A DNA stretch of 64,000 nt from Aurantibacter aestuarii. GTDB taxonomy: Bacteria; Bacteroidota; Bacteroidia; Flavobacteriales; Flavobacteriaceae. The DNA lies in contig NZ_PXOQ01000007.1 in the NCBI RefSeq assembly GCF_003008425.1, positions 520,419 to 584,418 of the forward strand, given 5' to 3'. Below are positions 36,261-52,019 of the stretch, piece by piece (position 1 is the stretch's first letter; each line of letters begins with the position of its first letter). The notes below the pieces were generated by a model. That model searched no databases. It saw only the letters and a list, made by a program, of their open reading frames with translations, and had not been told where the DNA came from. A program made the position numbers and the translations under genes.

Positions 36261-36290
36261 AAAACTAAGAGTAATAGTTTAATGTTTTTT

Positions 36291-36436: not shown

Positions 36437-36507
36437 TGTTCGAGCGCAGTCGAGAACTTAATCAAGATTGTATATAAAAAATCATTTAGACAGCAGGAAA
36501 TCACGCG
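36437..36507. repeat. Short intergenic repeat, GAGCGCAGTCGA type, second of a tandem pair
   Basis: GTTCGAGCGCAGTCGAGAAC, TTAATCAAGATTGTA, ATCATTTAGACAGCAGG, AAATCACGCG. Same block order as 36291-36358. The 36142-36628 spacer otherwise holds only the two palindromic elements; no gene is seen. Confidence 0.65.
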
Positions 36508-36539
36508 ATTAATCTTTAATACTTAAGTCTATGCTTTAG

Positions 36540-36620
36540 TGATAGAAGTGGCATCCTTTTTTTGGTGCGCCTAAGCCAAAAAAAGATATAACGGATAGCA
36601 CGACCTGAAAGGGAACGCCA
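36540..36620. repeat. Dispersed palindromic intergenic element, copy 3 (inverted)
   Basis: Reads on the minus strand as GGCGTTCCC, GGTCGTGCTATCCG, TTATATCTTTTTTTGGC, loop, CCAAAAAAAGGATGCCAC. Inverted pair 36555-36565 / 36576-36584. Lies 9 nt from the hemJ stop codon. Confidence 0.75.
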
Positions 36621-36628
36621 ATATGTTA

Positions 36629-37180
36629 CTAAGCCTCAGGGTTTTTATCTCTAATACGTTTATACACTTTAAAGCCCAACATTAATAAAATACCTAATAC
36701 TAAAATACCAATAACACCAAAAATCCAATTAATGGCACTTTTAACCAGTACCAAAAAGATAACTGCAAATAAAATAAAGGTGGCACCTTCATTCCATAAA
36801 CGCATAAAATTGCTGGTTTTACGAACATCATCTACTTGTAATTGCTTAAAGTAGATGTGTGTTTTTAAATGGTAAATAATTAATAGGACTACAAAACCTA
36901 ATTTAACTTGCATCCAAGACAACTCTAATAAAAAAGGTCTTAAATGTAAAAGTAGTAAGGCAAAAATAATGGCTAAAATGGCACTTGGCCAAGTAATAAT
37001 ATACCATAGGCGTTTTGCCATAAGTTTAAGTTGTTTGCCTAAAATTTCTTTTTCGGGAGAAGGTTTATGAAAGGCTTCTATTTGATAAACAAATAAACGC
37101 GGGATATAAAATAAACCTGCAAACCAAGTAATTACAAAAATAAGATGTAAAGCTTTTATATAGTTATAGTACGGTTCCAT
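36629..37180 (-). CDS. hemJ: HemJ-like protoporphyrinogen IX oxidase (CopD/UPF0093 family)
   Basis: 183 aa with four to five membrane helices. Starts with YIKALHLIFVITWFAGLFYIPRLFVY, the HemJ signature with the conserved His and Trp; another conserved stretch is LKLMAKRLWYIITWPSA. HemJ oxidises protoporphyrinogen IX to protoporphyrin IX. Assignment is helped by its place two genes from ferrochelatase; the family is also annotated CopD-like. The start lies 17 nt inside the MATE gene, so the three genes are a tight unit. Confidence 0.85.
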   Translation of the reverse strand: MEPYYNYIKALHLIFVITWFAGLFYIPRLFVYQIEAFHKPSPEKEILGKQLKLMAKRLWYIITWPSAILAIIFALLLLHLRPFLLELSWMQVKLGFVVLLIIYHLKTHIYFKQLQVDDVRKTSNFMRLWNEGATFILFAVIFLVLVKSAINWIFGVIGILVLGILLMLGFKVYKRIRDKNPEA

Positions 37181-38534
37181 GAGTCTGGTTTGGTGTTGAT
37201 GGAAGTTTATTTAATTCTCGTTTTAAAAAGATTGCTGTAATGATAGTTGCAGAAACATCGGAAATTGGAAATGCCATCCAAATACCTAATTCTCCAAAAA
37301 ACTGAGGTAAAATATACAACAAAGGTATAAATATGAAGCCTTGTCTGGTTAAAGTTAATAATAACGCAGGAATAGCTTTACCTATAGCCTGAAAATAGGC
37401 TGCGCCAATAATTTGAACGGCAGCTATAGGTGTTACAGCAAATACCCAGCGCATCGCATCTGGAGCCAGTTCTAAAACCGCTTTGTCGGTAGTAAATAAT
37501 TTTGAAATCGTTGTAGGGAAAAGCATCAATACAGCAAAGACGATAAACCCGAAAAACACCGCAGATTTTACTCCAACAGCAACAGATTCTTTCACCCTAC
37601 TATAGTTCTTTGCGCCATAATTAAAGCCTGCAATAGGTAAAAAACCTTGTGTAATCCCAAATACAGGAAATAACGCGAACATAAGCATACGTGCAGAGAT
37701 GGCGTAAGCGGTCACTAAGGTTTCTCCGCCATAATTAAAGAGTAAATTATTTAAATATAAATAGGTGATACTTACTACGGCTTGTCGGGCAAGTGTAACA
37801 AAACCTAAGCTACCAATTTCTTTAACTATAGGCAGTTTTAATTTAAAATGGGATATGTTGGGTTTTAATTCCGATTTTTTGGAGCAGAAAAACCAAAATA
37901 TAAAAGCGACACATAAACCATACGAAATAGTAGTCGCCCAAGCTGCGCCTTCCATACCATAATCTAATACATTTATTAAAAGATAATCGAGCAGCAAATT
38001 CCCAACCGATGGAATTAACATGGCATACATGGCAAATTTTGGTTTGCCCTCAGCTCTAATTACTGTGTTTCCCATCATGCACAAGGCCAAGAATGGCACA
38101 CCATAAAGCACAATGGTATAATATATTTTGGCAGGAGCAAAAATAGCACCTTTACCACCAAAAGAAGGAATAAGATTATCTACATAGTACAATCCCGCAG
38201 CAACAAAACTAACCGTAATTAGTAAAGTTAACGCGATTTGATTACCAAAAACAGTGAGTGCTTTATTATGGTTGTTGGAGCCTAAGGCTCTGGAGATAAT
38301 AGACGATCCACCAATACCAATACTCATACCAATAGCCGCAATAAAAAATGAGACTGGTAAGACAACATTAATAGCTGCAATTGCTGTTGGTCCAATCCAT
38401 TGACCCACAAAAATAGTATCGACTAAAATGTTTAAAGACATCACTAAAATACCTATAGAGGCAGGTACGGCTTGTTTGACCAAAAGTTTTGGTATGGTTT
38501 CCGAGCCTAATAGTGCTGCTTTGTTTGGTTTCAT
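37164..38534 (-). CDS. MATE-family efflux transporter
   Basis: 456 aa with twelve hydrophobic segments in two MATE repeats (PASIGILVMSLNILVDTIFVGQWIGP and the later GITQGFLPIAGFNYGAKNY are typical). Exports cations, drugs or metabolites using an ion gradient. It overlaps hemJ by 17 nt and touches hemH by 1 nt, so it is translated from the same message as two heme enzymes; a role with porphyrins or heme is possible but only inferred. Confidence 0.92.
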   Translation of the reverse strand: MKPNKAALLGSETIPKLLVKQAVPASIGILVMSLNILVDTIFVGQWIGPTAIAAINVVLPVSFFIAAIGMSIGIGGSSIISRALGSNNHNKALTVFGNQIALTLLITVSFVAAGLYYVDNLIPSFGGKGAIFAPAKIYYTIVLYGVPFLALCMMGNTVIRAEGKPKFAMYAMLIPSVGNLLLDYLLINVLDYGMEGAAWATTISYGLCVAFIFWFFCSKKSELKPNISHFKLKLPIVKEIGSLGFVTLARQAVVSITYLYLNNLLFNYGGETLVTAYAISARMLMFALFPVFGITQGFLPIAGFNYGAKNYSRVKESVAVGVKSAVFFGFIVFAVLMLFPTTISKLFTTDKAVLELAPDAMRWVFAVTPIAAVQIIGAAYFQAIGKAIPALLLTLTRQGFIFIPLLYILPQFFGELGIWMAFPISDVSATIITAIFLKRELNKLPSTPNQTHGTVL

Positions 38535-39565
38535 TAAGCGTTAACAGGTGTTTTTGCCCAGTCGTTAATCCATTGTGCTAATAAATCTACCCATGGCTGG
38601 TCCGAATTTAAACACGGTACTGTTGTAAATTCTTTACCACCAACTTCGTGGAACAGTTCTTCACCTTCCATAGCAATTTCTTCTAAGGTTTCTAAGCAAT
38701 CACTTACAAATGCAGGCGTAACTATAGCCATGTTTTTAATGCCTTTTTTCCCTAAACGTTCTATGGTTCTGTCCGTATAAGGTTGTAACCAAGGATCAAA
38801 TCCTAATCGGGATTGAAATGATGTTGAATACGTATCGGGCTTTAAGTTTAGTTTTTCGGCAACCAATCGGGTAACTTCCTTACATTGGTGTCTGTAACAA
38901 AATTCGTGTGCAGGACTTGGTGTAGCACAACAAGAGCCATCTATTTTACAATGTGATTTTGTAATATCGCTTTTTCGAATATGACGTTCTGGAACACCAT
39001 GATATGAAAACAGTAAATGCTCGTAATCTTTATCTTTTAAATGATGTTGAATTGAATTTGATAGCACATTAATATAATCTTCATTATTATAAAAAGCAGG
39101 TAAATCTTGAATCTTTACATTAGGAAAATGTTGCGCTCTAACCTCTTCTGCTAACACCAAAATAGTCTCGGTTGTTGCCATAGCAAATTGTGGGTATAAT
39201 GGTATTAAAAACACCTCTTCTACACCTTTGTCTACCAGCTCTTGTAGTCCTTTTTTTATGGTCATACTTCCGTAGCGCATAGCTAAAGCAACAGGATAGT
39301 CTACTTTTTCCTGCACTTTTTCTTTTAACTGTTCACTTAACACAATTAAAGGCGAGCCATTTTCCCACCATATTTTTTGGTAAGCTTTGGCACTTTGTTT
39401 AGGTCTGGTATTTAAAATAATCCCTTTAACTAAAAGCGTTCTTGCCCATAAAGGCACGTCTATAACGCGTTCATCCATTAAAAATTCCCCTAAATATGTT
39501 TTGACGTCTTTTGGAGTAGGAGAATCTGGCGAACCCAGATTAACCATTAAAATGCCTTTTTTCAT
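38534..39565 (-). CDS. hemH: Ferrochelatase with internal Cys cluster
   Basis: Inserts Fe(II) into protoporphyrin IX at the last step of heme synthesis. 343 aa. Motifs VNLGSPDSPTPKDV, active-site His in FSYHGVPERH (about residue 189), and TYSTSFQSRLGFDPWLQPYT (family signature). A Cys-rich loop follows the active-site His: C206, C212, C213, C223 and C228. Some bacterial ferrochelatases bind a [2Fe-2S] cluster through such an internal group, so a cluster is plausible. First gene of the leftward hemH-MATE-hemJ unit. Confidence 0.96.
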   Translation of the reverse strand: MKKGILMVNLGSPDSPTPKDVKTYLGEFLMDERVIDVPLWARTLLVKGIILNTRPKQSAKAYQKIWWENGSPLIVLSEQLKEKVQEKVDYPVALAMRYGSMTIKKGLQELVDKGVEEVFLIPLYPQFAMATTETILVLAEEVRAQHFPNVKIQDLPAFYNNEDYINVLSNSIQHHLKDKDYEHLLFSYHGVPERHIRKSDITKSHCKIDGSCCATPSPAHEFCYRHQCKEVTRLVAEKLNLKPDTYSTSFQSRLGFDPWLQPYTDRTIERLGKKGIKNMAIVTPAFVSDCLETLEEIAMEGEELFHEVGGKEFTTVPCLNSDQPWVDLLAQWINDWAKTPVNA

Positions 39566-39585
39566 TTAAAAAATTTATAGTGTTA

Positions 39586-39593
39586 CAAAAATA
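39586..39593 (-). promoter_or_regulatory. Candidate -7 promoter box for hemH-MATE-hemJ
   Basis: On the minus strand TATTTTTG matches TAnnTTTG, 20 nt before the hemH start. Confidence 0.45.
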
Positions 39594-39683
39594 CAATTCT
39601 ATTTTGTAATATGCCTACTTATTAAGCGTTGCTATAGTAGTAAGATATTTTAATACCTTTACATACCTTTTTCTTAAGTATTT

Positions 39684-42600
39684 ATGAAGTACAGTGTTTT
39701 TTACCTCTTTATTTTTGTTTCATTTATCGGGTTTTCCCAAGAAAATCAAAACAGTTTATTATGGGAAATTAGTGGTAATGGTTTAGAAAAACCTTCTTAC
39801 TTATATGGTACCATGCATGTAAGCAATAAAGTGGCGTTTCGATTGGACGATGTGTTTTTTGAAGCCTTAAATAATGCCGATTATGTTGCTTTAGAATCCA
39901 GCCCGAGTGAATGGCTGGAGTATAATTACTACACCACGACGTTGTTTCCGCAAAATTATGCCTCTACGTTTAAAGATGATTTTTATTCTAATATTGTTGG
40001 AATTGAAGCTCCCAAAGATTTGCTAATTCGTTCTGCTATACGCTTTAATAACCAGTTAGTTAATGGTATTTTATACAGAAAAGATTCGGCTAAAGATAAT
40101 TTTGAAGAAGAAACCTACCTAGATATGTTTATTTATCAGGCAGGAAAAAAAACTAATAAGCCCATTATTAGTCTCGAAAATTTAGAAGAGTCGCGATATT
40201 TGGTAGCAAAAGCACAAAAAAATTCAAAAAAAGATAAAATAGACCCTTGGTTGGCTAAGTTATATGAAAAGGAAAACGCATATTTATTAAGAGAAAATAC
40301 GTACCGAGATCGAAATATCCAGTTTTTAGATTCTATAAGTAAAGCATCAAATTCTGAATATTTTAGAGAACATATGCTATTTATTAGAAATGATAATATG
40401 GTTAAGGTTCTAGATTCTGTTATGCAAACCAAGTCTGTGTTTTCTGGAGTTGGAGCAGCGCATTTAGGCGGAAAACGCGGGATGATACAATTACTTCAAA
40501 ATTTAGGATATCGTGTAAAACCCTTAACATCTTTAAAAACAAATCTTGCCATAACCGAAAAGGAACGCTTGGAAACCAAAATTAAAACCCCTGTATTTTC
40601 TAAGCAGCAAACTCCAGATGGTTTTATAAGCTTAAATGCATATGGCGAGTTACGAGAATTCTTGTATAATGGAATTAAATATTACATATCTCCAGACTTA
40701 CCAAACGGCGCACATTTAACGCTTACCAGAATAAACACCTTTAACTATTTACCTAACGATAATAATTTATACTTAAACCACATTGAAAAGTTTTTGTTTG
40801 AAGACGTTCCGGGAAAAATCATTTCGAAAGAACCTATTACGGGGAAATTTCCTGGGTTAAGTATTGTTAATCAGACCAAAAAAGGCGATTATGAAAAATT
40901 TCATATTTATCAAACGCCACTAGAATTTATTATTATTAAATTATCTGGGCTTAAAACTTACGTGTTAGATTTTGAAAAAAATGTGTTCGATTCAATTTCA
41001 TTTAAAGAATCTGCAACAACATTTACGGTATTAAAGGAGCCTTTTAATAAATATGAACTAAAATTTCCCGAAACTTACGTGACGGATAATTACGATTATT
41101 CAGGTAATAAACTCGTGCAAGGTTATTACAACAATGCCTTTTACTTTTTAAGAGAAACCGTTTATCATGACAATTATTATTTGGAAGAAGATAGTTTCGA
41201 GGCAAAATTTATGGCTCATAACTTTCTTAAAAACCTGGAATTGGAAGTTAACGAAGGTAAACTTACAAGAACACCAGTTACAAGTTATGAAACCAATGCT
41301 ATATTAAAAGATTCTGTTAATGGTCTTCATTTAAAAACCGTAATAAAAGATGGTAGTTACTACACCTTAGGTTATGTAGGACAAAGTGAGGCAGAAGCTA
41401 AAAAGTATTTCAGCTCTTTAAAATTTAAAGCATACCAATATCCGGATAATTTTGAAACAGTTATTGATACGTCTTTGCATTTTTCAGTAAAAACAAATAC
41501 CAAAACTATACCACCAAAAAGCAACTATAGTTACGAAAAAGAAAAACCTTATGCTGAAAAAGAGACCTTAACAACCTATTATAGTAAAGCAAACGAACAG
41601 ATTTATGTGACCAAATACAAGTATCACGATTTACAGATGTTTGAACACATTGATAGTTTGTGGGCTACCGTAAAAAAAGAATATGAAAATTATAGCCAGT
41701 ATGAGGGCTACAAGGATTTTATTATTTTAAATGAAAAGAAACAGGTTAAAGACAGTACGTTTACATATGAGTATATTTTAAGAGATACTGCCAGTATTAA
41801 ACAAGTTTACGTAAAAAACATACTTAAAAAAGGCGCTTATTTTGAGTTACGTGCTCAAGGTGATACCATAACGCCACAAAGTCAATTTTTAAAAACATTT
41901 TACAATTCCTTCCAACCCTTAGATACCTTGTTGGGAGTTTCTGTATTTAAAGATAAAACACCAATTTTTTTAGAAGCACTAAAAGCCAATGATAGCATTG
42001 TGTTTGATAGTGTAGATAAATTAAAATTTAACACCACTCATGCAGAACCTTTAATGAAGTTTTTAAAAACTTTCGATTTCCCTGAAAATAAAATTGATAT
42101 TAAATACAAGCTTATTAAAGAGCTGGCACAGCTGGAGCATCCAAATTTAGAAACTTACTTGGAGCAGTTATATGATGATTCTTACAGCGATCCAGAAGTT
42201 CAAATTATAGTTTTAAATAGTTTTTTTAGAAAGAATACCACGAAATCGTATGAGAAGTTTATTCAACTCCTTAATAAAGATTTACCCTTAGATGAGCGTG
42301 AAATTACAAATGTTTTAAACCGTTATAACGATAGTTTAAGTGGTAAAAAACAGTTGTTTCCAGAATTATTACAGTTTACATCTGTAAACGATTACAAGGC
42401 TCCAATTTATGGTCTGTTGAGTCAGCTTATTATTAAAGACGAAATTAAGCCTAAAGTCTACAAAAAATATAAAAAGCAAATTATTAACGATGGTAAAATT
42501 GAAATAAAGCGTAGTTATAGTCAATATAGCAGTTCTTACAAAGGAAACTATGGCCTAATAGATTATGTGTATTTAATTTTTCCTTACCGTGAAGAAAAAA

Positions 42601-43157
42601 CAGCACAAGAATTTTTTAACAAATTAATTGAAAGTAAAAACGGACATGCCCAAGCGTCTTATTATTCGTTATTAGCAAGAGAAAATGAAACCATACCTAA
42701 TGCTTTAAAAGAAAAAACCATTTATAGTGATGATCTTAAACACCTTATAATAAGTAAGCTTTACCATAAAGAATTATATACTCATGCGAAAGCAACTGGT
42801 ATAACACAGGACAGCTACATTAAATCTTACTTATTTGCCGATACGAATATTGAAAAAGAGCGTGATTCCATAGTATTTGTAGACAAAAAACCATTTGAAA
42901 CCGATTTAGGAGATAAAGGAGAAATTCATTTCTATAAACTAATTAAAACCACAAGCGACTCTGAAAATACTCGTTTATACTATTTCGCTTATTTAAAGGA
43001 CGATTCTAACGACTTAATTGTTCTAGATTCGTATTTAGAAACAGGCTCTTACGGAGAAGAGTTTAATGAAAATAAAGACGAAGAAGAACTCTATCAAAAC
43101 ATTATTGATAAAGTAGTCCACAAAACCAGAAAACGATTGATGGATGAGGATTATTAA
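39684..43157 (+). CDS. Large exported TraB/GumN-family protein
   Basis: 1157 aa. Signal peptide ending near IGFSQE. Residues about 20-295 are a TraB/GumN domain: SLLWEISGNGLEKPSYLYGTMHVS, ADYVALESSPSEW, and VFSGVGAAHLGGKRGMIQLL near its end. These carry the GTxH, Glu and GxxH motifs thought to be catalytic in this poorly known hydrolase-like family. The remaining 850 residues have no recognised domain and include helical stretches with tandem-repeat character near 800-1000. Family members are usually near 300 aa. The last codons are duplicated at 45240-45281; the stop abuts the stop of the nuclease-like gene. Confidence 0.85.
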   Translation: MKYSVFYLFIFVSFIGFSQENQNSLLWEISGNGLEKPSYLYGTMHVSNKVAFRLDDVFFEALNNADYVALESSPSEWLEYNYYTTTLFPQNYASTFKDDFYSNIVGIEAPKDLLIRSAIRFNNQLVNGILYRKDSAKDNFEEETYLDMFIYQAGKKTNKPIISLENLEESRYLVAKAQKNSKKDKIDPWLAKLYEKENAYLLRENTYRDRNIQFLDSISKASNSEYFREHMLFIRNDNMVKVLDSVMQTKSVFSGVGAAHLGGKRGMIQLLQNLGYRVKPLTSLKTNLAITEKERLETKIKTPVFSKQQTPDGFISLNAYGELREFLYNGIKYYISPDLPNGAHLTLTRINTFNYLPNDNNLYLNHIEKFLFEDVPGKIISKEPITGKFPGLSIVNQTKKGDYEKFHIYQTPLEFIIIKLSGLKTYVLDFEKNVFDSISFKESATTFTVLKEPFNKYELKFPETYVTDNYDYSGNKLVQGYYNNAFYFLRETVYHDNYYLEEDSFEAKFMAHNFLKNLELEVNEGKLTRTPVTSYETNAILKDSVNGLHLKTVIKDGSYYTLGYVGQSEAEAKKYFSSLKFKAYQYPDNFETVIDTSLHFSVKTNTKTIPPKSNYSYEKEKPYAEKETLTTYYSKANEQIYVTKYKYHDLQMFEHIDSLWATVKKEYENYSQYEGYKDFIILNEKKQVKDSTFTYEYILRDTASIKQVYVKNILKKGAYFELRAQGDTITPQSQFLKTFYNSFQPLDTLLGVSVFKDKTPIFLEALKANDSIVFDSVDKLKFNTTHAEPLMKFLKTFDFPENKIDIKYKLIKELAQLEHPNLETYLEQLYDDSYSDPEVQIIVLNSFFRKNTTKSYEKFIQLLNKDLPLDEREITNVLNRYNDSLSGKKQLFPELLQFTSVNDYKAPIYGLLSQLIIKDEIKPKVYKKYKKQIINDGKIEIKRSYSQYSSSYKGNYGLIDYVYLIFPYREEKTAQEFFNKLIESKNGHAQASYYSLLARENETIPNALKEKTIYSDDLKHLIISKLYHKELYTHAKATGITQDSYIKSYLFADTNIEKERDSIVFVDKKPFETDLGDKGEIHFYKLIKTTSDSENTRLYYFAYLKDDSNDLIVLDSYLETGSYGEEFNENKDEEELYQNIIDKVVHKTRKRLMDEDY

Positions 43158-45002
43158 TTATTTGCTTAAAGCCTTTAAAATTCTTTCTTCATTTATCACA
43201 ATATCTCGAAATAAAACATGAGGAAATTCATTAAATTTTGATGTTTTAAAAGCTTCGGAAATATTTAATAAGGTTGAAGCGGTTATAAGCGATAGATTCA
43301 TTTCTGTATCCATTTCACAATCAGTAACAAAATCATCACTAAATTCAGGAGCGACTAAAAGAATTTTTACAATTCTCAAATCATTTTTTAAAGCAACATT
43401 TTGATAAGATTTTAGTTGTCTAGAAACTGTACTAAACTTGTTATAACCCTTCTCTTTACTTGTTTTGCATTCTACAATTATAATTTCATTGTTACCTAAA
43501 TTGATTAGGATATCCATCATGTCTTTCTTGGTGTTTAATTGATTCTTTAAAACATCATCAACTTGTAAACCAAGACCTTCGAAAATAGTTTTTGTTAATT
43601 CTTCAAATTTTAAACCAAGCTCACTTTCTTTAACTGTTATTCCGTTTTCTTTTAAAACATTTAAATTTCTATACGCAACATTCTCAAAATTTTCCAAATA
43701 AAGATTTTCAACATCTTTGTAGTGTTCTAATATGTTAAGAATATTATCGCCACGTTGTTTTACTCCATTATCTTTAATAAATTTAATTAAATCTTCTTTA
43801 ACCAATAAATCTAAAATATCTCTTGGTTTTATGTTATAGTCTAATAAAAAATCAGCTTTTAAAACATATTCATCCTGCAATTCAAATTGCTCTTTAATGT
43901 GTTTATTTTGTTTTGGTAGAGATTGATTTAACTCAGAAAGGAGCTTATCAAACCCATCGATAGAAATGCCTACTTTCTCATCTCTTTCAACGCTGTCGAA
44001 GTGTTCAATTAGGCTACATATTTTATCTTCTAAAACACTACCTTTTAAATTATTAATATTTAATCCTTTTTCACAAAGCTCATTTAATGTCTTTTTCTTT
44101 TCTGTAAGAGTACTGCCTTGCTTATAAATATCTTCCAAAAGTAGATTGGTAAAAGAAACACCTTCTTTTATAATTTCTTCTATTTTCTGTGCTGGTGTTA
44201 ATTTTCTGTCAATATTATGTTCTTTACAAATTTGATTTAAAATTGGCTCTCTTAGTAATTTTAGAGTTCTTCTAAAAAATTTCTCAGCGACTTCTTGTTC
44301 CCTAACTCTTCTAAGAACCCTAACCATCTCATCAGCAACATAAATCGTATTTTCTTTATTTGAATAGAAAATAACTCCTATGTTTTTCAAACTCTTAATA
44401 ACATCCTGAATATCAAGTTTTTTTATTGGAAGAATGGAATAGTTTATTAGTTTAATCTCCTCTTGAGATAAACCAAGTTGTTTTGATAATGTTAGTATAA
44501 TTGAAAGCTCATCAGATGTTATTTTTGCATCTCTATTATTATCTACATCATTAAAATAGGCTGTATGTAAGCAAGATTTGTAAATTTTATAATCTCTCTT
44601 TCTGGAAGAAGATAGTTCCGATTTTTCATCTTCAAAATCAGCATTTAATTCTTTAATTTTATTTTTAAGTTGTTTGATTTCTTTCTCATATAATCTTGAA
44701 AACCAATCTTGCTTCATGATACAATTACCATCTCTAATAATAATATCTATTAAAATATCTAACTGGGATGTGATTTCTTGAAATTCACATTTTATATGAT
44801 CTTGAAATTCGTTTTGAGTAAGTTCAAATATTTTTGAAATATTTTGATTGTCTACAGACTTTAAACCTTTATCTGTAGAACTTAATATTTTATTTATAAT
44901 CTTTAAATTATTAGGTTCTTTAGATATAATATTGTCTATTATTTTTATGAATGAGTTTTTCTCAATAGAGCCTAACTTATCTAGTATTTTTTCTAATTTC
45001 AT
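43158..45002 (-). CDS. Uncharacterised 614-aa protein with C-terminal PD-(D/E)XK nuclease-like domain
   Basis: Not recognised as a named family. The C-terminal 160 residues fit a restriction-endonuclease-like fold: a helix with Glu (KFEELTKTIFEGLGLQV), an Asp in KKDMMDILINL (D494 or D497), ExK in EIIIVECKTS (E511, K513) and Gln in VSRQLKSYQ. The N-terminal 450 residues are mostly helical and charged; an EF-hand-like stretch DNNRDAKITSDE precedes LGLSQEEIKLI, recalling TerB-like bundles. No signal peptide, so cytoplasmic. It converges on the TraB/GumN gene with no spacer, inside a duplicated slot. A DNA-targeting defence or stress role is plausible, not shown. Confidence 0.6.
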   Translation of the reverse strand: MKLEKILDKLGSIEKNSFIKIIDNIISKEPNNLKIINKILSSTDKGLKSVDNQNISKIFELTQNEFQDHIKCEFQEITSQLDILIDIIIRDGNCIMKQDWFSRLYEKEIKQLKNKIKELNADFEDEKSELSSSRKRDYKIYKSCLHTAYFNDVDNNRDAKITSDELSIILTLSKQLGLSQEEIKLINYSILPIKKLDIQDVIKSLKNIGVIFYSNKENTIYVADEMVRVLRRVREQEVAEKFFRRTLKLLREPILNQICKEHNIDRKLTPAQKIEEIIKEGVSFTNLLLEDIYKQGSTLTEKKKTLNELCEKGLNINNLKGSVLEDKICSLIEHFDSVERDEKVGISIDGFDKLLSELNQSLPKQNKHIKEQFELQDEYVLKADFLLDYNIKPRDILDLLVKEDLIKFIKDNGVKQRGDNILNILEHYKDVENLYLENFENVAYRNLNVLKENGITVKESELGLKFEELTKTIFEGLGLQVDDVLKNQLNTKKDMMDILINLGNNEIIIVECKTSKEKGYNKFSTVSRQLKSYQNVALKNDLRIVKILLVAPEFSDDFVTDCEMDTEMNLSLITASTLLNISEAFKTSKFNEFPHVLFRDIVINEERILKALSK

Positions 45003-45081
45003 GGTGGGGTTTTTGGTTGGTTAAAATAAATTTAGACTCTAAAATAATAAATTAATTCTCTTAAAGCACAATTAATAATAT

Positions 45082-45228
45082 TTAACTACTCTGCAAATAC
45101 TTTTTAGGCGTAGTAACATATTTCTTTTTAAAAGCGGCTATAAAATGGCTTCCAGTGCTATAACCAACTTTTAAACCTACTTCGTTAACGTTATGAGTTC
45201 TAGCTTTTATGAGTTTACGATTAACTTC
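45082..45228 (-). pseudogene. Fragment: last 48 codons of an AraC-family regulator gene
   Basis: In-frame copy of the C-terminus and stop codon of the regulator at 47856-48743: 42 of 48 residues identical by my count (THNVNEVGLKVGYSTG shared exactly). The first 110 bp from the stop side carry only about two mismatches. The copy stops abruptly at 45229-45239, where a fragment of the TraB/GumN gene begins. No upstream part of the regulator is present, so it is a remnant of a recombination event and not a functional gene. Confidence 0.85.
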
Positions 45229-45239
45229 AAAACAATTAT

Positions 45240-45281
45240 AAAGTAAAAACAAGAAAACGATTAATAGATGAGGATTATTAA
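45240..45281 (+). pseudogene. Fragment: 3' end of the TraB/GumN-family gene
   Basis: Encodes KVKTRKRLIDEDY and a stop, against KVVHKTRKRLMDEDY and a stop at 43113-43157; the last 30 bp differ at two positions. It directly follows the AraC fragment. The remaining 127 nt before the next gene hold no recognised feature beyond presumed promoter DNA. Confidence 0.75.
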
Positions 45282-45408
45282 GTTTTTTATTGAAAATATT
45301 AATACGTATACGTTATTTAACCTCAAAAGATGAATTTTATCGAATATTTTAAACAAAACATTGCGTAGTTTATATTATTGAATATATTCCTATTATAAAA
45401 GTAGGTAT

Positions 45409-46149
45409 ATGATTAAAAAATTACTCCCAGCCTTGATTTGTTTTCCATTATTCGCACAAGTTGGAATAAATACAACAAATCCACAACAAGCTTTACATAT
45501 AGGTTCCAATACAGGTACAGTTAGAGTTGAAAGTTTAGATGCAGATAATAGTCCCTATAACGCAGGAGATGTAGATGGTGATATGGATTTATCAAATAAT
45601 ACATATAATCTATACGTCGATGATTTAGGTAATTTAACCACAGAGTTTAAACCATTATATAATAGTAATGGTACAGATGCGGTTGATGATGCTGCCATCC
45701 CAGTAAATTTTGTGTCTCTTGCGGCTAATGATACCGATGGTGAAGCAGATGTTCAAATAACCTTATTTGAAGTTACTATAAACAGACCAGCAATTCTTGA
45801 AGTAAAATACAATTTAAGTTTTGATGTGTATTTAAATGCGGGAAGAGTCCCGATATCCGATAATTTTGCAAGAAGAATAAGTACTTATTTTATTGTAAGT
45901 GGTGTGGGAACTAGAAAGTATGGTCCGGTTTCTAAATGCTATTCTAGTGGCTCTGCCTTAAGTGTTACGGGTCCTATGTATAATGCTTCTACTGCGTACA
46001 TACAACTTCCTGGTGCTGGCAAATATGAAATTCAATTTTATGGCGAAGTATCTTCAAATGTAAAAGGCGGCGGAGGTGGCACAACCTCTAAAGCAGCATA
46101 TGTTGAATTTGCTACAGGATATGACGCTATATTTCTTCGTCTTCATTAA
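45409..46149 (+). CDS. Secreted protein, tandem paralog 1 of 3
   Basis: 246 aa. Short signal peptide (LPALICFPLFAQ) followed by VGINTTNPQQALHIGS, the VGIxTxNPQxxLHV motif widespread in Flavobacteriia surface proteins and also in tail-fibre-like proteins. The rest is beta-rich with no catalytic residues and no T9SS sorting domain. The C-terminal half ends in a Gly-rich segment (VKGGGGGTTSK) and a strand. Likely exported or cell-surface; function unknown. Followed by paralog 2 after 21 nt. Confidence 0.75.
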   Translation: MIKKLLPALICFPLFAQVGINTTNPQQALHIGSNTGTVRVESLDADNSPYNAGDVDGDMDLSNNTYNLYVDDLGNLTTEFKPLYNSNGTDAVDDAAIPVNFVSLAANDTDGEADVQITLFEVTINRPAILEVKYNLSFDVYLNAGRVPISDNFARRISTYFIVSGVGTRKYGPVSKCYSSGSALSVTGPMYNASTAYIQLPGAGKYEIQFYGEVSSNVKGGGGGTTSKAAYVEFATGYDAIFLRLH

Positions 46150-46170
46150 TATTTAAAACCAAAAAACATT

Positions 46171-46944
46171 ATGAAAAAAAACTATTTTATCATAGTAATG
46201 TTCAACCTATGCTTTTTTATAAGCTTTTCTCAAGTAGGGATAGGTACATTAACACCTCAAGAGGAATTGCATGTTGCAGGAACTAATTCTACTATTAGAA
46301 TAGATGCCTTAAATACTGCTAATAACCCTGTACAAAACCCATCGGGTAAGCTAGTAAAAGCTTATGTTGATGGTAATGGAGATATAACTTTTGGAAGCGG
46401 ATTTGGGTCAGATTCTATTGAGCCATTAAACTTTCTTTTAGATATACCAAATTTTATAGAAGACGATCCTTACGCATTAGGTTATGGTTCTGGTTCTGTC
46501 GTTAATTGTGGTGTAGGTAGCACAACCAATGAAGATACTATAAAAACAATAACATTTAATTGTCCTCAAGCGGCAACCGTAGAGGTTAAATATGGCATTA
46601 CGTTATTAATAACTGGTAACGATTTAAGTACTAGTCCTCCAACTACTTATGCAACATATGATAGAGCTGTAAGTATGATAACTTATTTCTGTGTAGATGT
46701 TAATAGTGATGGTCTAGATGCTACAGAAAAAAGTATTAGACATGGTTACAAAGGTCAGTCTTATGAAACAAATTATGGGGGCACCATAGGTTATCCATAT
46801 ATGAATAGCCAAGGTTATTTAACTCTACCTGCAGGAAACCACACCTTACATTTTTTTGGAGAGGTTAATAGCAACGCTTTAGATTTTACAAGCGTAGGGT
46901 TTGGTGGAGATAAAGATTATTTAAAAATTAGAATTTACAATTAA
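46171..46944 (+). CDS. Secreted protein, tandem paralog 2 of 3
   Basis: 257 aa. Signal peptide ending near ISFSQ, then VGIGTLTPQEELHVAG and IRIDALNTANNPVQ, parallel to the neighbouring genes. Two Cys pairs (VVNCGVG, TFNCPQ) and one more Cys in YFCVDVNSDG distinguish it from paralog 1. The last residues (GNHTLHFFGEVNSNA) align with the same position of paralog 1 (GKYEIQFYGEVSSNV). Separated from paralog 3 by 2 nt; one transcript. Confidence 0.75.
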   Translation: MKKNYFIIVMFNLCFFISFSQVGIGTLTPQEELHVAGTNSTIRIDALNTANNPVQNPSGKLVKAYVDGNGDITFGSGFGSDSIEPLNFLLDIPNFIEDDPYALGYGSGSVVNCGVGSTTNEDTIKTITFNCPQAATVEVKYGITLLITGNDLSTSPPTTYATYDRAVSMITYFCVDVNSDGLDATEKSIRHGYKGQSYETNYGGTIGYPYMNSQGYLTLPAGNHTLHFFGEVNSNALDFTSVGFGGDKDYLKIRIYN

Positions 46945-46946
46945 TT

Positions 46947-47792
46947 ATGAAAAAATTATATATAACCTTTAGCTTTGTATGTATTTTTAGTACTGCTTTT
47001 TCACAAGTAGGTATTAATACAGACAATCCACAACAAGCATTACATGTTGGTGGACCTATTGAAACTATTAGAATAGATGGTTTAAGTAGTGCAAATAACC
47101 CAAATAATTTGGGTCCAGACAGTACAACACAAGTGCATATAGACGACAATGGAGATCTAGTGTTAGGGACACAAACGGATAATATAGAAATTTTATTCGA
47201 TTCTGAGAATTACTTAATTGATGGAATTAGTCCAACAACTTTAATTAATCAAACTGGAGGTGGTTTTGGTTATACAACCGCAGGTATACCCGTTGGGGGA
47301 ACAGCAACAAGTTTTACCTTAACAAAAAATGCTATTGTAGAAATAAATTATTCTGTATCGTGGTCAGTTTACAAAACAGCAAACCCTTCAGGTAGAATTG
47401 ATGACGAACATGCTAGAATTGTACAAACAGGTTTATATTTTAGAAGAAATAATTATTTAGGACCTGCCGTAACATTTGATGTGGATGGCAATCCAATAAA
47501 TGATGGGCCTTGGTGTATTGATGTTAATTCAAGTGGTACAAATTGCCAAGAAGTAGGAGGAATGTTAGCAATTAATGGTCAATTTTATAATAACGGAGAT
47601 GGTAGAAATGGTGAATATGAAAATTTTCATAATACTGGTTCAGATTATGTTAAGTTGGGACCAGGCACTTATACAGCAATGTTTGCTGCTCAATTAGCGG
47701 TTGGAGATACGGGAGGAACAGGTGCTGTAAAAATGTATATTGGAACAGGAAATGATGATATTCAAATAATAGCACATTATTACCAAGATTAA
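46947..47792 (+). CDS. Secreted protein, tandem paralog 3 of 3
   Basis: 281 aa. Signal peptide ending near TAFSQ, then VGINTDNPQQALHVGG and ETIRIDGLSSANNPNN. The C-terminal part contains GPGTYTAMFAAQLAVGD where the others have the GEV strand. Pro/Gly- and Asn-rich, with Cys in WCIDVNSSGTNCQEVGG. The first 50 residues are the best conserved among the three paralogs; the rest has diverged, as in surface proteins under variation. It converges with the AraC regulator. Confidence 0.75.
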   Translation: MKKLYITFSFVCIFSTAFSQVGINTDNPQQALHVGGPIETIRIDGLSSANNPNNLGPDSTTQVHIDDNGDLVLGTQTDNIEILFDSENYLIDGISPTTLINQTGGGFGYTTAGIPVGGTATSFTLTKNAIVEINYSVSWSVYKTANPSGRIDDEHARIVQTGLYFRRNNYLGPAVTFDVDGNPINDGPWCIDVNSSGTNCQEVGGMLAINGQFYNNGDGRNGEYENFHNTGSDYVKLGPGTYTAMFAAQLAVGDTGGTGAVKMYIGTGNDDIQIIAHYYQD

Positions 47793-47855
47793 TACTTACA
47801 AGTTTTTATATAAAGGTGTCTGTAACTGTAAAGTTATAAGATACCTTTTCTCATT

Positions 47856-48743
47856 TTAACTACTCTGCAAATACTTTTTAGGCGTAGTACCATATTTCTT
47901 TTTAAAAGCGGCTATAAAATGGCTTCCTGTGCTATAACCAACTTTTAAACCTACTTCGTTAACGTTATGAGTTCCGGTTTCTAAGAGTTTACGGGCAACT
48001 TCCATCTTATAATCAAACAAAAAGCCATAAACCGTATCGCCATAAATTTGCTTAAAGCCTTCTTTTAGTTTTTTTAAGCTTAAATTAATCTCGTCCGATA
48101 ATTCCTGTAAAGTTGGTGGCTCTGCCATGCGAGAAATAATAATATCTTTAGCACGCTTTATTTTGGTTACATTACTTTCATCGGCTAAAAATGGGCATTG
48201 TTCAATATCGGCATCTTCATTTCGGTTAAAATAAAGACTTAATAACTCATAAGCTTTCGCTTTAAAATAGAGTGGTTTTATAATCTCATTAAGATTGTAG
48301 TTAATCACCTGATTTAAAGCAATACTCATAGACGGCGAAATTTGCCCATCTTTATAATACTTGGTGTCTTTATTGTCTTTGTTCAAAAATGAAATATAAT
48401 CGGCTTCCTGAGAAAATAAACCATGAAACTTTTTAATAGAAATCACTATAGAAACCATCCAACTATTCGGCTTTACTTTTAAAAAAATAGGTAAGTCTCT
48501 TTGCGGGTTATAAAGTAATAGTGAAGATTCTTCAGAAATGTCTAAAACATAAGAGCCATTATTAAATAAAAAGGCGCTATGTCCTTTCAAACAAAAATGA
48601 AACTGAATAAAACTACTGTCTATATCTCTCTCAATATCAACAATTTGATTGGTGTCGTTTCGGTAACTTAAAACTAAAAATCCATCTTCAATCTGGGTTT
48701 CATTATAGAACCCTTTAGCGTTATTTTTTTCTGAAATAGACAT
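47856..48743 (-). CDS. AraC-family transcriptional regulator, divergent from hemA
   Basis: 295 aa. N-terminal 180 residues form an unassigned sensor region; C-terminal double helix-turn-helix (LQELSDEINLSLKKLKEGFKQ and NEVGLKVGYSTGSHFIAAFKK). The family includes iron- and siderophore-responsive regulators in other bacteria (PchR-like), and the gene faces hemA across 199 nt, so control of heme synthesis by iron or heme status is a fair inference. The 3' 147 nt are also present as a fragment at 45082. Confidence 0.9.
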   Translation of the reverse strand: MSISEKNNAKGFYNETQIEDGFLVLSYRNDTNQIVDIERDIDSSFIQFHFCLKGHSAFLFNNGSYVLDISEESSLLLYNPQRDLPIFLKVKPNSWMVSIVISIKKFHGLFSQEADYISFLNKDNKDTKYYKDGQISPSMSIALNQVINYNLNEIIKPLYFKAKAYELLSLYFNRNEDADIEQCPFLADESNVTKIKRAKDIIISRMAEPPTLQELSDEINLSLKKLKEGFKQIYGDTVYGFLFDYKMEVARKLLETGTHNVNEVGLKVGYSTGSHFIAAFKKKYGTTPKKYLQSS

Positions 48744-48912
48744 AAAAAATATATTTATTTTATTTAGATTCGTTCTAAACTAATTTTAGCTTAGCAACCG
48801 TAAAAGCTTGTTATTACTGTAATAATAGTGTAAAAATACAAAAAACAACTCTAAAAAACCACAAGCGACATTTATTGTTCTTACAGCGTTATAAAAAACC
48901 ATAACCGACGTG

Positions 48913-48920
48913 TAAATTTG
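48913..48920 (+). promoter_or_regulatory. Candidate -7 promoter box for hemA
   Basis: TAAATTTG matches TAnnTTTG, 22 nt before the hemA start. The 199-nt divergent region would also hold the regulator promoter and any operator; I cannot define an operator. Confidence 0.5.
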
Positions 48921-48942
48921 CAGACAATACCTTAATGCTTTA

Positions 48943-50184
48943 ATGGAACAATACCACATCTCTAAAGGAACTCATTTCTATGCCTTAGGCTTAAGCTATA
49001 AAAAAGCAGATGCCGAGGTAAGAGGTCATTTTAGTTTAGATGAAAACGCAAAAGCTAATTTACTGGCTCAGGCTAAGGAAGCTGGTATTGAGAGCTTACT
49101 GGTAACTTCTACCTGTAACCGTACAGAAATTTTTGGCTTTGCCGAGCACCCATATCAATTAATTAAATTACTATGTGACAACACCAAAGGAACGGTTGAA
49201 GAGTTTCAGGAAGTCGCATACATTTATAAAAGCCGTGAAGCTATCTCGCATTTATTTCGTGTAGGTTGTGGCTTGGATAGTCAGATATTAGGGGATTTTG
49301 AAATTATAAGTCAATTAAAAGTAAGTGCTAGAGCTTCAAAAAAACAAGGCTTATTAAATCCTTTTTTAGAGCGTTTATTAAATGCCGTAATTCAAGCAAG
49401 TAAACGTATTAAGACCGAAACCGAGATTTCTTCGGGAGCAACATCGGTATCTTTTGCATCGGTACATTATATTTTAAATGAAGTTGAAAACGTTTCAGAT
49501 AAAAATATTTTATTATTTGGAACTGGTAAAATAGGACGTAATACCTGCGAAAATTTGGTAAAACACACCAAAAATGAGCATATTACACTTATTAATCGTA
49601 CTAAAGATAAAGCCGAAAAAATTGCTGGTAAATTTAATCTAGTAGTTAAAGATTATGCCAATTTACAGGAAGAAATTCACGCTGCAGATATTTTAATTGT
49701 ATCTACAGGTGCACAAAACCCAACGGTAGATAAATATATTATTAAAAACAACAAACCGCTTTTAATTTTAGACTTATCGATTCCTAAAAATGTAAATGAA
49801 AATGTGACCGATTTAGAACAAGTCACTTTAGTACATCTGGATCAATTATCTCAAATGACAGACGATACTCTGGAGCGTCGTAAAACTCATATTCCTTTAG
49901 CTGAAGAAATTATAGAAGAAGTAAAAACCGATTTTAACGCTTGGTTAGAGACACGTAAATTTGCGCCAACTATAAAAGCTTTAAAACATAAACTTCACGA
50001 TTTTAAAATTGCCGAACTAGATACACAACGTAAAAAGTTGGCTAATTTTAACGAAGAACAAGCCGAATTAATTAGTAATAATATTATACAAAAAATAACA
50101 AATCACTTTGCGCACCATTTAAAAGATGATGCGAGTTCTAATACAGATAGTTTAGAACTTATTAAAAAAGTGTTTCAGTTATAA
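48943..50184 (+). CDS. hemA: Glutamyl-tRNA reductase
   Basis: Reduces glutamyl-tRNA to glutamate-1-semialdehyde, the committed step of the C5 pathway. 413 aa. Catalytic Cys in TSTCNRTEIFG (about residue 59), RVGCGLDSQILGDFEI, SGATSVSFASVHYIL and the NADPH-binding ILLFGTGKIGRNT are intact, with a C-terminal dimerisation helix region. First gene of the rightward heme unit; hemCD begins 14 nt later. No hemL is in the window. Confidence 0.97.
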   Translation: MEQYHISKGTHFYALGLSYKKADAEVRGHFSLDENAKANLLAQAKEAGIESLLVTSTCNRTEIFGFAEHPYQLIKLLCDNTKGTVEEFQEVAYIYKSREAISHLFRVGCGLDSQILGDFEIISQLKVSARASKKQGLLNPFLERLLNAVIQASKRIKTETEISSGATSVSFASVHYILNEVENVSDKNILLFGTGKIGRNTCENLVKHTKNEHITLINRTKDKAEKIAGKFNLVVKDYANLQEEIHAADILIVSTGAQNPTVDKYIIKNNKPLLILDLSIPKNVNENVTDLEQVTLVHLDQLSQMTDDTLERRKTHIPLAEEIIEEVKTDFNAWLETRKFAPTIKALKHKLHDFKIAELDTQRKKLANFNEEQAELISNNIIQKITNHFAHHLKDDASSNTDSLELIKKVFQL

Positions 50185-50198
50185 GAACCAAATAAACC

Positions 50199-51782
50199 AT
50201 GTCTAAAACCATACGCATTGGTACACGCGATAGCCAACTAGCCCTTTGGCAAGCAAACGCAGTAAAATCTCAGTTAGAACATTTGGGTCACGAATGTGTT
50301 TTAGTGCCTGTAAAATCCACAGGAGACATAGTGTTAGACAAGCCACTTTATGAGCTTGGAGTCACTGGAATTTTCACCAAAACATTAGATATTGCTTTGT
50401 TAAATGGCGATATAGATGTGGCAGTACACTCTTTAAAAGATGTACCAACCATGATGCCGGAAGGCATTATACAAGCGGCAGTTTTAAAACGTGGAAACAC
50501 ACGTGATATGTTGGTTTTTAACGATTCTGAAGAATTTTTAAGTCAGCCAGACGCAATAATAGCTACGAGCAGTTTACGTCGAAGAGCGCAGTGGTTAAAC
50601 CGCTTTCCTACTCATAAAGTTGAAGATATTCGTGGTAATGTTAATTCTCGTTTAGAGAAACTTGAAAATAGCGAAACTTGGAATGGTGCTATTTTCGCAG
50701 CTGCGGGATTAGGGCGTTTAGGAATTAAACCAGAAAACTCGTTTAATTTAGATTGGATGATTCCTGCACCAGCACAAGGCGCAGTTATGGTTGCTGCATT
50801 GGAAGAAAATGTTGAGGTCATAGAAATTTGTAAAGAAATTAACGACGAAAAAACAGAAATTTGTACCTCTATAGAACGTAAATTTTTACGAATTCTGGAA
50901 GGTGGTTGTTCTGCACCAATTGGAGCATTAGCGTTTTACAGAGATAAAGAAGATGATATTTGTTTTAAAGGAATTTTACTAAGTCGTGATGGAACACGTA
51001 AAATTGAAGTTGAGAAAATTGAACCTTTCGGAAAACATCATGATATCGCCAATTTTTGTGCACATTATATTTTAGATAAAGGTGGAAATAGTTTAGTAGA
51101 CATCCGTGATTATACTAAAAGAGATGAAACAGTTTTCTCTACAAAAGCTTTAACCGACGAGCAGAATAAATTATTCCATGATGGGATCAAAGTTAATCAT
51201 GCCGATTTTGTAAAAGTAAATATTAATCGTCTTGCACCACATGTGCTTAAAAAAGCACATAAAAATGTAGTTATCACAAGTCAGAATGCGGTAGAAGCTA
51301 TAGTAAATAGTGTTCCTGCTGAAGACTTAAATTTTAAGACTATTTACTGCGTAGGAAGACGTACAAAAAAGTTAATAGAACAAAAAATAGGAAAAGTAAA
51401 ACACCAAGCTAAAAATGCCGAGACCTTAGCAAATTATCTACTAGATTATATGGAAGGCACAGAAGTTACTTATTTTTGTAGTGATATTCGTTTAGATGCC
51501 TTACCTACTATTTTAGGAGAAAGCAATATTAAAGTTGAAGAAATTGAAGCTTACAGCACAAAGTTTGATCCTTTAGAAATTAATACTAAAGCAGAAGGTG
51601 TGATGTTTTACAGTCCAAGCACTATAGACAGTTTTGTAAAAGAAAACACCATAAGACCTATTGCATTTTGTATTGGAGAAACTACAGCAAAACACGCCAG
51701 AAAACATTTTGAAGATGTACGTGTGGCAAAAGTGCCAACGGTAGAAAGTGTGATTGAATTAGTAAATGAAGCATTTGTGTAA
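50199..51782 (+). CDS. hemCD: Fused porphobilinogen deaminase and uroporphyrinogen-III synthase
   Basis: 527 aa. Residues about 1-305 are HemC (start IRIGTRDSQLALWQA, SLKDVPT, TSSLRRRAQW and EGGCSAPIGAL with the Cys that binds the dipyrromethane cofactor). Residues about 305-527 are HemD-like (NVVITSQNAVEAIV, IYCVGRRTKKLI, YFCSDIRLDALP, MFYSPSTIDSFV and IGETTAKHAR). One protein would make hydroxymethylbilane and close it to uroporphyrinogen III. The fusion is seen in other Flavobacteriia. Followed by a 356-nt spacer with repeats and a tRNA gene. Confidence 0.94.
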   Translation: MSKTIRIGTRDSQLALWQANAVKSQLEHLGHECVLVPVKSTGDIVLDKPLYELGVTGIFTKTLDIALLNGDIDVAVHSLKDVPTMMPEGIIQAAVLKRGNTRDMLVFNDSEEFLSQPDAIIATSSLRRRAQWLNRFPTHKVEDIRGNVNSRLEKLENSETWNGAIFAAAGLGRLGIKPENSFNLDWMIPAPAQGAVMVAALEENVEVIEICKEINDEKTEICTSIERKFLRILEGGCSAPIGALAFYRDKEDDICFKGILLSRDGTRKIEVEKIEPFGKHHDIANFCAHYILDKGGNSLVDIRDYTKRDETVFSTKALTDEQNKLFHDGIKVNHADFVKVNINRLAPHVLKKAHKNVVITSQNAVEAIVNSVPAEDLNFKTIYCVGRRTKKLIEQKIGKVKHQAKNAETLANYLLDYMEGTEVTYFCSDIRLDALPTILGESNIKVEEIEAYSTKFDPLEINTKAEGVMFYSPSTIDSFVKENTIRPIAFCIGETTAKHARKHFEDVRVAKVPTVESVIELVNEAFV

Positions 51783-51821
51783 AATAGCTTTTTAGCAATA
51801 ACAGGTTAACTAACAAGGCAT

Positions 51822-51858
51822 GTCTGGTTGAGCCTTTCGACTGTCGCTCAAGACAGGC
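51822..51858. repeat. Short intergenic repeat, GTCTGGTTGAGC type
   Basis: GTCTGGTTGAGCC followed by TTTCGACTGTCGCTCAAGACAGG, partly palindromic. Related to the GAGCGCAGTCGA repeats near 1.9, 36.3, 36.4, 52.1 and 59.6 kb. Confidence 0.55.
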
Positions 51859-51932
51859 TAAAGTTGAGACCTAATAAATCAGAGAACAAGCTAATAGCAA
51901 AAGGCCACCTGCTATAAGCAAAAAATATAACT

Positions 51933-52019
51933 AGAGAGTTGACAGAGCGGCCGATCGTGCTACCTTGGAAAGGTAGTGTACTTGCAAAGGTACCAAGGGT
52001 TCGAATCCCTTACTCTCTG
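51933..52019 (+). tRNA. tRNA-Ser (GGA)
   Basis: Class II tRNA of 87 nt. Acceptor AGAGAGT / ACTCTCT, anticodon stem CTACC / GGTAG with loop TTGGAAA (anticodon GGA), long variable arm with GTAC / GTAC stem, T arm AAGGG / CCCTT around TTCGAAT, discriminator G. The 3' CCA is not encoded. Reads UCC/UCU codons. It lies on the heme operon strand between hemCD and hemE, with repeats on both sides. Confidence 0.95.

What the first reader, a model, noticed from the sequence alone, without database searches (positions are those of the whole stretch)
43113..48743. Twin gene-tail fragments mark a duplicated cargo slot between a TraB/GumN gene and an AraC regulator
At 45082-45281 two remnants lie side by side: 48 C-terminal codons of the AraC gene (minus strand) and the last codons of the TraB/GumN gene (plus strand). 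The intact originals are at 47856-48743 and 39684-43157. The order is TraB tail, cargo 1 (614-aa nuclease-like gene), AraC tail, TraB tail, cargo 2 (three secreted paralogs), AraC. Each copy of the slot has its own cargo. A tandem duplication, or single-crossover entry of a circular or homologous fragment, explains the geometry; the cargo then differs because the two slots came from different strains or diverged. The fragments are in frame and near identical on the stop side, so the event is fairly recent.
Basis: partly seen in the sequence, partly recalled or inferred. Interest (0 to 1): 0.8.

Follow-up and report, generated by a model that had tools for sequence, protein, structure and literature searches.

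The report
Stranded gene ends in a cargo slot
In flavobacteria, foreign genes enter one chromosomal gap and sometimes leave broken-off ends of the neighbouring genes behind; the two fragments here look like such scars, a natural trace of a known but rarely seen kind of DNA insertion.

Summary
Between a TraB/GumN gene and an AraC gene lie a 148-bp AraC tail (45081-45228) and a 55-bp TraB tail (45227-45281), fused over two shared bases. The sister genome has one copy of each tail and a 350-bp slot. In 160 measurable loci the gap runs from -4 bp to 13 kb: a true cargo slot, framed by AraC-hemA and hemH.

Four other genomes carry comparable scars, AraC tails in two and hemH heads in two. With the window that is six direct fragments in 226 searches with slot-facing gene ends, against none in 452 control searches. 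In those four the scar holds the flank gene's ancestral place, and DNA beyond the joint has no second direct copy in the held stretch, so tandem duplication does not explain them.

Best reading: additive insertion, homologous at one end and illegitimate at the other, as proposed for Vibrio T6SS arrays. For the window itself tandem duplication remains possible. Cargo 1 is a solitary, wandering, nuclease-like gene.

The parts
38534..39565 (-). hemH (ferrochelatase), constant left flank in relatives
   Evidence: ORF; found within the held stretch in 78 of 80 named AraC loci. The gene name is recalled from the sequence, not from a family search.
39684..43157 (+). TraB/GumN gene, optional left neighbour of the slot
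   Evidence: Pfam PF01963, 8.6e-30; 20 of 149 family genomes at E 1e-60; 20 of 80 named loci
43158..45002 (-). cargo 1: 614-aa solitary nuclease-like gene; its stop codon abuts the TraB stop codon
   Evidence: ORF; 18 of 299 family genomes, own and sister included; D497 and E511-x-K513 invariant in 17 aligned copies; reading these as a PD-(D/E)XK motif is recalled, not tested
45081..45228 (-). AraC' remnant: last 148 bp of the AraC gene region, stop included
   Evidence: 138 of 148 identical to 47855-48002
45227..45228 (.). fusion joint with 2-bp shared TC
45227..45281 (+). TraB' remnant: last codons of the TraB/GumN gene including the stop
   Evidence: aligned with 43094-43157; 0 of 2,000 shuffles reach the score
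45409..46149 (+). cargo 2a, secreted paralog (signal peptide judged by eye)
   Evidence: ORF; 33% identical to 2c; weak PADLOC match PD-T4-10_B at E 0.0035
46171..46944 (+). cargo 2b, secreted paralog (signal peptide judged by eye)
   Evidence: ORF; 33% identical to 2c
46947..47792 (+). cargo 2c, secreted paralog (signal peptide judged by eye)
   Evidence: ORF; relatives in 8 of 149 family genomes, this one included, at E 1e-15
47856..48743 (-). intact AraC-family regulator, constant right flank and possible homologous anchor
   Evidence: HTH_18 4.1e-18; matched in 144 of 149 family genomes at E 1e-8, the weakest being distant AraC proteins
48943..50184 (+). hemA, divergent from AraC, constant outer flank
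   Evidence: ORF; present in 80 of 80 named AraC loci; name recalled from the sequence

Best explanation
The fragments are the scar of an additive insertion into a cargo slot that shows no integrase. A DNA piece from the same slot of a related strain entered the cell, probably by natural transformation. One end recombined by homology in a flank gene (AraC-hemA, or TraB on the other side). The other end was joined illegitimately, at a 2-bp match. The incoming piece carried the flank gene's end, so the flank survives intact on the far side of the new cargo, while the last 148 bp of AraC and the last 55 bp of TraB are left fused in between. Old cargo is kept and new cargo is added. Shown: the fragments, their geometry, the variable slot, and four comparable single scars in other genomes with their polarity. 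Inferred: the route of entry, and the one-sided mechanism itself. Undecided: which of cargo 1 and cargo 2 arrived second.
For: Twin fragments and joint. Sister genome with one tail each and a 350-bp slot. Slot length -4 to 13,000 bp in 160 measurable loci. Scars in 5 of the 113 loci with a slot of at least 60 bp: window, L056, L077 (AraC tails), L174, L250 (hemH heads); 6 direct fragments at E 1e-4 or better in 226 searches with slot-facing ends, 0 in 452 searches with other parts of the same genes (Fisher p 0.0013 treating searches as independent). Polarity: the L056 remnant overlaps the TraB stop by 4 nt as AraC does in L063, L078 and L083; the L077 remnant follows a gene and terminator-like hairpin that precede intact AraC in L067 (score 136 for the whole stretch; 86 for the part after the gene's stop, remnant included, against a best of 34 in 500 shuffles); in L174 a hemH start lies 8 nt after the AraC stop, a spacing found in empty loci; in L250 the remnant follows the ORF family that directly precedes hemH in five relatives. 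Beyond the four joints, 400-bp queries found no second direct copy in the held stretch. No integrase family matched the window cargo or nine of eleven ORFs of the scarred slots.
Against: The window itself is equally compatible with tandem duplication, since its joint is TraB tail on one side and AraC tail on the other. Only 5 of 113 slots show scars. The L077 fragment is weak alone (E 3e-5 to 6e-5 in its own slot; with a family profile it scores below the best shuffles) and rests on synteny. Direct orientation alone is not diagnostic: all 83 gene-end hits inside ORFs were direct too, presumably tandem paralogs. The uneven divergence of AraC' needs a second process. The Pfam families of ComEC and DprA are present, but also in control genomes such as E. 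coli, so competence is not shown. PMC5361080 itself notes that this kind of recombination is orders of magnitude rarer than ordinary homologous recombination. No strain series of this species was available, and no reads were seen.
Confidence: 0.6

Rival explanations
1. In-place tandem duplication of a segment with a TraB tail, gap and AraC tail, followed by separate cargo gain or replacement in the two slots.
For: The joint AraC'|TraB' is what a tandem duplication from 43094 to 48002 would leave, with a 2-bp match. AraC' is nearly identical to the resident AraC over 120 bp, while the sister's AraC differs at many of those positions.
Against: Needs further events to make the cargo differ. The four other scars show no second direct copy beyond the joint.
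Confidence: 0.22
2. Single-crossover entry of a circle carrying a TraB tail, cargo and an AraC tail.
Against: Needs a circular intermediate with a fused AraC'-TraB' joint; cargo 1 had no match in the phage records and only 34-35% relatives in three plasmid records; the other scars have no such joint.
Confidence: 0.08
3. Integrase-driven insertion of a now degenerate element that duplicates gene ends as attachment sites.
For: Elements that target gene ends also leave end remnants (recalled knowledge).
Against: Break points differ (about 32 to 148 bp from the gene end) and fall in three genes, AraC 3', TraB 3' and hemH 5'; no integrase family matched; no tRNA at 36000-52000.
Confidence: 0.04
4. 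Assembly artefact.
For: One genome, reads not seen.
Against: The fragments are diverged copies, not identical repeats, and the same kind of scar appears in other assemblies.
Confidence: 0.02

Closest known systems
Orphan immunity arrays of Vibrio cholerae T6SS clusters, model of homology-facilitated illegitimate recombination (PMC5361080: abstract and sections 12 and 13 read; the same mechanism is invoked in PMC9711863, passages seen)
   Same: One homologous anchor, illegitimate joining at the other end, an older gene or gene 3' end kept and pushed outward, successive addition.
   Different: Here the anchors would be housekeeping neighbours (AraC-hemA, hemH), the cargo has no T6SS match, and the scars are ends of the anchor genes, from both sides of the slot.
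Minimal mobile elements of Neisseria (definition read in passages of PMC3082526)
   Same: Two conserved genes with different whole-gene cassettes between them.
   Different: Those are described as incorporated by homologous recombination and compared between strains; here one-sided joints add cargo and leave scars, and the comparison is between species and genera.
Hotspots without recognisable mobile elements, with recombination at flanking core genes (PMC5635113, passages read)
   Same: Variable slot between conserved genes without recognised mobile elements.
   Different: That model is double homologous recombination; the scars suggest one homologous and one illegitimate end.
Tandem duplications made by transformation in pneumococcus (PMC3784515, passages read)
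   Same: Transformation can generate duplicated segments.
   Different: Those arise by unequal crossing-over at repeats and span about 100 to 900 kb.

Membership tests
Homology-facilitated illegitimate recombination product | Intact anchor gene on one side, truncated resident end at the other joint | tested here: met
   Window and four other genomes
Homology-facilitated illegitimate recombination product | Illegitimate joint with no or very short homology | tested here: inconclusive
   2-bp match in the window; the donor side of the other joints is unknown
Homology-facilitated illegitimate recombination product | Incoming anchor sequence of donor origin | tested here: inconclusive
   In L056 the remnant scores higher against other Winogradskyella AraC tails (92, 86, 80) than against its own intact AraC (68), but the intact tail also scores 92 with L055; not resolvable in the window
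Homology-facilitated illegitimate recombination product | Entry of DNA by transformation or another route | not testable with these tools
   Pfam families of ComEC and DprA present, also in control genomes; activity unknown
Minimal mobile element | Different cassettes between the same two conserved genes | tested here: met
   125 ORFs of at least 80 aa in 49 clusters, 35 singletons, in 68 slots of at least 300 bp. Shown between species and genera, not between strains.
Minimal mobile element | No mobility genes | tested here: inconclusive
   None matched among the window cargo and nine of eleven ORFs of four scarred slots; other slots were not annotated
Tandem duplication | Sequence beyond the joint is a second copy of sequence in the locus | tested here: inconclusive
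   Met in the window; not met in L056, L077, L174, L250 (L077 has one 19-bp inverted match at E 0.007)
Site-specific integrative element | Integrase and constant attachment core | tested here: not met
   No integrase family matched; break points in three genes at different distances
PD-(D/E)XK nuclease (cargo 1) | Fold and catalytic residues | tested here: inconclusive
   D497, E511, K513 invariant, but no match above cut-off in Pfam or NCBIfam and none in PADLOC, best PDB-sequence match E 0.21, model unusable at mean pLDDT 37.5

The most novel reading that the evidence does not exclude
Cargo 1 is a self-spreading single gene: its nuclease opens intergenic sites and provokes one-sided capture of its own DNA, and the twin tails are a by-product of its arrival. 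It is found in 18 of 299 family genomes, is as similar to a copy in another genus (86%) as to the sister's (87%), and its immediate neighbours differ at every site compared except one pair.
Probability: 0.06. Interest if true: 0.75.

Novelty: new member of a known kind. Interest (0 to 1): 0.42.

Why it matters
How hotspots without integrases gain genes is mostly inferred from recombination rates in their flanks. Stranded gene ends are a physical trace of single insertion events, with polarity and break points readable from one genome and its relatives. If the pattern holds, they would allow a survey of one-sided insertion in nature and an order of arrival for cargo genes. The slot also exposes a wandering, uncharacterised 614-aa nuclease-like gene that deserves a function test.

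Tried and rejected
Structure models of cargo 1 (two sequences) and of the cargo-2 paralogs (three sequences) came out at mean pLDDT 37.5 and 43.7 and were not used for fold searches. A family profile of AraC tails found the window (E 1.8e-30) and L056 (1.2e-7); L077 scored below the best shuffles, so it rests on its own-gene match and synteny. A search for flank repeats around the other cargo-1 copies gave three isolated repeats (L140 inverted, L141, L143); L141 and L143 were inspected and do not look like gene-end scars. An attempt to place the 28 diverged AraC' bases by comparison with other AraC genes was out of register and is not used. Slot lengths of three loci (L063, L078, L083) were wrong because the stops overlap; one search corrects them. 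A Fisher test used a wrong count (10 of 28); one search gives the right one (8 of 28). The inverted 18-bp TraB hit in L052 reaches the stop codon and is read as a hairpin; it is left out of the scar count. L235 (direct, E 2e-4) is also left out, being weaker than 1e-4 and not at the gene's end. In one search hemH hits starting within 14 bp of the slot edge were skipped by the script. Of 177 loci considered, 14 duplicates were dropped before counting 163, and three of those had no measurable left flank. A count of TraB in 35 of 163 is not used as a frequency because 14 of those loci were chosen for having TraB and 68 come from genomes in which TraB had not been found next to AraC.
Full report
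Observation. The ORF map, sequence, repeat search and alignments confirm the twin fragments. AraC' covers 45081-45228 and matches 47855-48002 at 138 of 148 bases. TraB' covers 45227-45281 and matches 43094-43157 with 52 matches, 3 substitutions and three gaps of 9 nt in total. None of 2,000 shuffles reached the TraB' score. The broken inner ends are fused with TC shared. A search of the own genome with 45060-45300 finds three places: the pair itself, the intact AraC and the intact TraB end.

Divergence is uneven. The 120 stop-proximal bases of AraC' differ from AraC at 2 positions, the next 28 at 8 (p 2e-5). The sister genome's AraC differs from both at many positions over the 120 bp. AraC' has lost residues largely conserved in the 60 loci printed (ARKLLE.G reads NRKLIKAR; the G of KKYGTTPKKY, R in L068 and L071, reads V). 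So AraC' is a decaying tail whose stop-proximal part was probably made alike again by gene conversion, or replaced when slot 1 received new cargo (inference). 'Recent' is therefore not a safe reading.

The slot in relatives. Only one other genome of the genus is held. There TraB and AraC stand 350 bp apart with one copy of each tail; its own copy of cargo 1 lies on another contig. In the family TraB was found in 20 of 149 genomes at E 1e-60 and AraC in 144 of 149 at E 1e-8, the weakest being distant AraC proteins. From the window, 80 named loci, 16 of 20 loci and 80 loci, 163 distinct AraC loci remained after removing 14 duplicates. The gap from the AraC stop to the TraB stop or hemH start was measurable in 160: 65 are at most 100 bp, 68 at least 300 bp, 37 at least 1 kb, the longest 13 kb. 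In the 68 slots of at least 300 bp, 125 ORFs of 80 aa or more fall into 49 clusters, 35 of them singletons; the largest cluster has 27 members, so some cargo is widely shared. Of the 80 named loci, 80 have hemA, 78 hemH and 20 TraB.

Other scars. Own-gene searches of the slots and a general scan of 183 held loci, 2.9 Mb, together found four more loci with stranded flank-gene ends; L077 appears only in the own-gene searches. L056 (record title: Winogradskyella sp. UBA3174, MAG) has an AraC tail coding KKKFGTTPKKYITASS* whose stop overlaps the TraB stop by 4 nt, as AraC does in L063, L078 and L083, then 4.4 kb of cargo, then intact AraC ending KKYIMGAS*. L077 (uncultured Psychroserpens) has a 32-bp AraC tail after a gene and terminator-like hairpin that in L067 directly precede intact AraC. 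L174 has a hemH start 8 nt after the AraC stop, then cargo, then intact hemH. L250 has 33 identical bases of the hemH start after an ORF whose relatives precede hemH in five loci, then cargo, then intact hemH. In each the remnant holds the ancestral place and the cargo lies between it and the intact gene. The five genomes span at least three genera by the labels (window g1, L250 g70, L174 g149), L056 and L077 bear two genus names, and their AraC proteins are 62-83% identical to each other.

Controls. In 113 slots of at least 60 bp, 226 searches with slot-facing ends gave 6 direct hits at E 1e-4 or better in 5 loci, one inverted 18-bp hit at a stop codon (L052), and one weaker direct hit away from the gene end (L235). 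The 452 searches with heads, middles or far ends of the same genes gave none at E 1e-3 (p 0.0013, searches taken as independent). In the general scan 18 of 19 non-coding gene-end copies were direct (9 heads, 9 tails, one inverted head); some are relics of whole genes, as in L072 and L194, and the 83 hits inside ORFs were all direct too, so direct orientation alone proves little. A 400-bp query just beyond the joint found no second direct copy in the held stretch in L056, L077, L174 or L250 (L077: one 19-bp inverted match at E 0.007); in the window it is the TraB tail, plus a piece of a cargo-2 paralog. The held stretches of L174 and L250 are about 11 kb.

Mechanism. One-sided insertion needs one event in each locus: homologous pairing in a flank gene at one end, illegitimate joining at the other, the resident gene end left stranded. 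In the window the joint is AraC tail on one side and TraB tail on the other, so under this model the donor carried the same locus. Whether AraC was the anchor (cargo 2 new) or TraB (cargo 1 new) cannot be decided. The Pfam families of ComEC and DprA are present, but they also occur in control genomes such as E. coli. Competence is reported for Riemerella in this family, while Flavobacterium johnsoniae was not competent in the same study (PMC7965970, start of abstract in the listing). No integrase family matched the cargo searched, no Rfam family reached its threshold at 39000-50500 and no tRNA lies at 36000-52000.

Known systems. The closest is the Vibrio cholerae T6SS immunity-array model (PMC5361080), which proposes homology-facilitated illegitimate recombination and a displaced effector 3' end, and notes that the process is orders of magnitude rarer than ordinary homologous recombination. 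PMC9711863 (passages) invokes it again for V. cholerae. [quoted passage not shown] Minimal mobile elements (PMC3082526) and hotspots without mobile elements (PMC5635113) describe such slots but explain them by homologous recombination. In the capped listings I saw no report of this locus or of stranded housekeeping-gene ends as scars; that is no proof of absence.

Cargo 1. The 614-aa gene is in 18 of 299 family genomes, own and sister included; 16 copies are 57-87% identical to it and one further copy, with a stop inside, 36%. It is as similar to the copy of another genus (86%, G062, whose AraC is 76%) as to the sister's (87%, AraC 89%). Its immediate neighbours differ at each site compared except that L149 and L150 share one (proteins linked at E 1e-8). 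It matches phrog_34709, and an 81% copy lies in a viral-collection contig where 3 of 9 neighbouring proteins scanned match phage families, one a head maturation protease. It had no match in the phage records and 34-35% relatives in three Pseudoalteromonas plasmid records. A carried defence- or competition-type nuclease is a guess; PADLOC has no match.

Verdict. A real scar pair in a genuine cargo slot, most likely from one-sided additive insertion. The mechanism class is known; its recurrence at one housekeeping locus in five genomes is, as far as I saw, a new example.

Noticed in passing
window 43158-45002; loci L107-L123 and L137-L152: The 614-aa cargo-1 gene recurs alone in unrelated neighbourhoods in 18 of 299 family genomes, and once among phage-like genes (L253); function unknown.
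   Followed up: partly
window 48852-48914: Two copies, 40 bp apart, of a motif like AAAAAACCACAAGCGAC in the AraC-hemA divergent promoter; with one mismatch allowed it occurs in 56 of 95 loci with enough sequence, at similar positions in the 15 printed (no shuffle control). A candidate AraC operator.
   Followed up: partly
L141, about 8949-9131 and 14458-14637 in the orientation with cargo 1 on +: A 184-bp direct repeat (88%) flanks the roughly 5.3-kb block that holds cargo 1 in genome G015.
   Followed up: partly
L146 1586-1636, L149 12636-12781, L181 1216-1258, L040 20761-20819, L030 9840-9876: Further non-coding copies of gene heads or tails in direct orientation, possibly the same kind of scar elsewhere; the one in L030 is a piece of the AraC head just upstream of AraC.
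   Followed up: no
L153, L156, L157, TraB-AraC slot: Three genomes share four ORF clusters in this slot (416, about 654, about 351 and about 447 aa), a candidate transferred operon.
   Followed up: no
L174 slot, remnant hemH start, and window 45201-45228: In two scars the bases next to the break are much more diverged than the extreme gene end; cause unknown.
   Followed up: no
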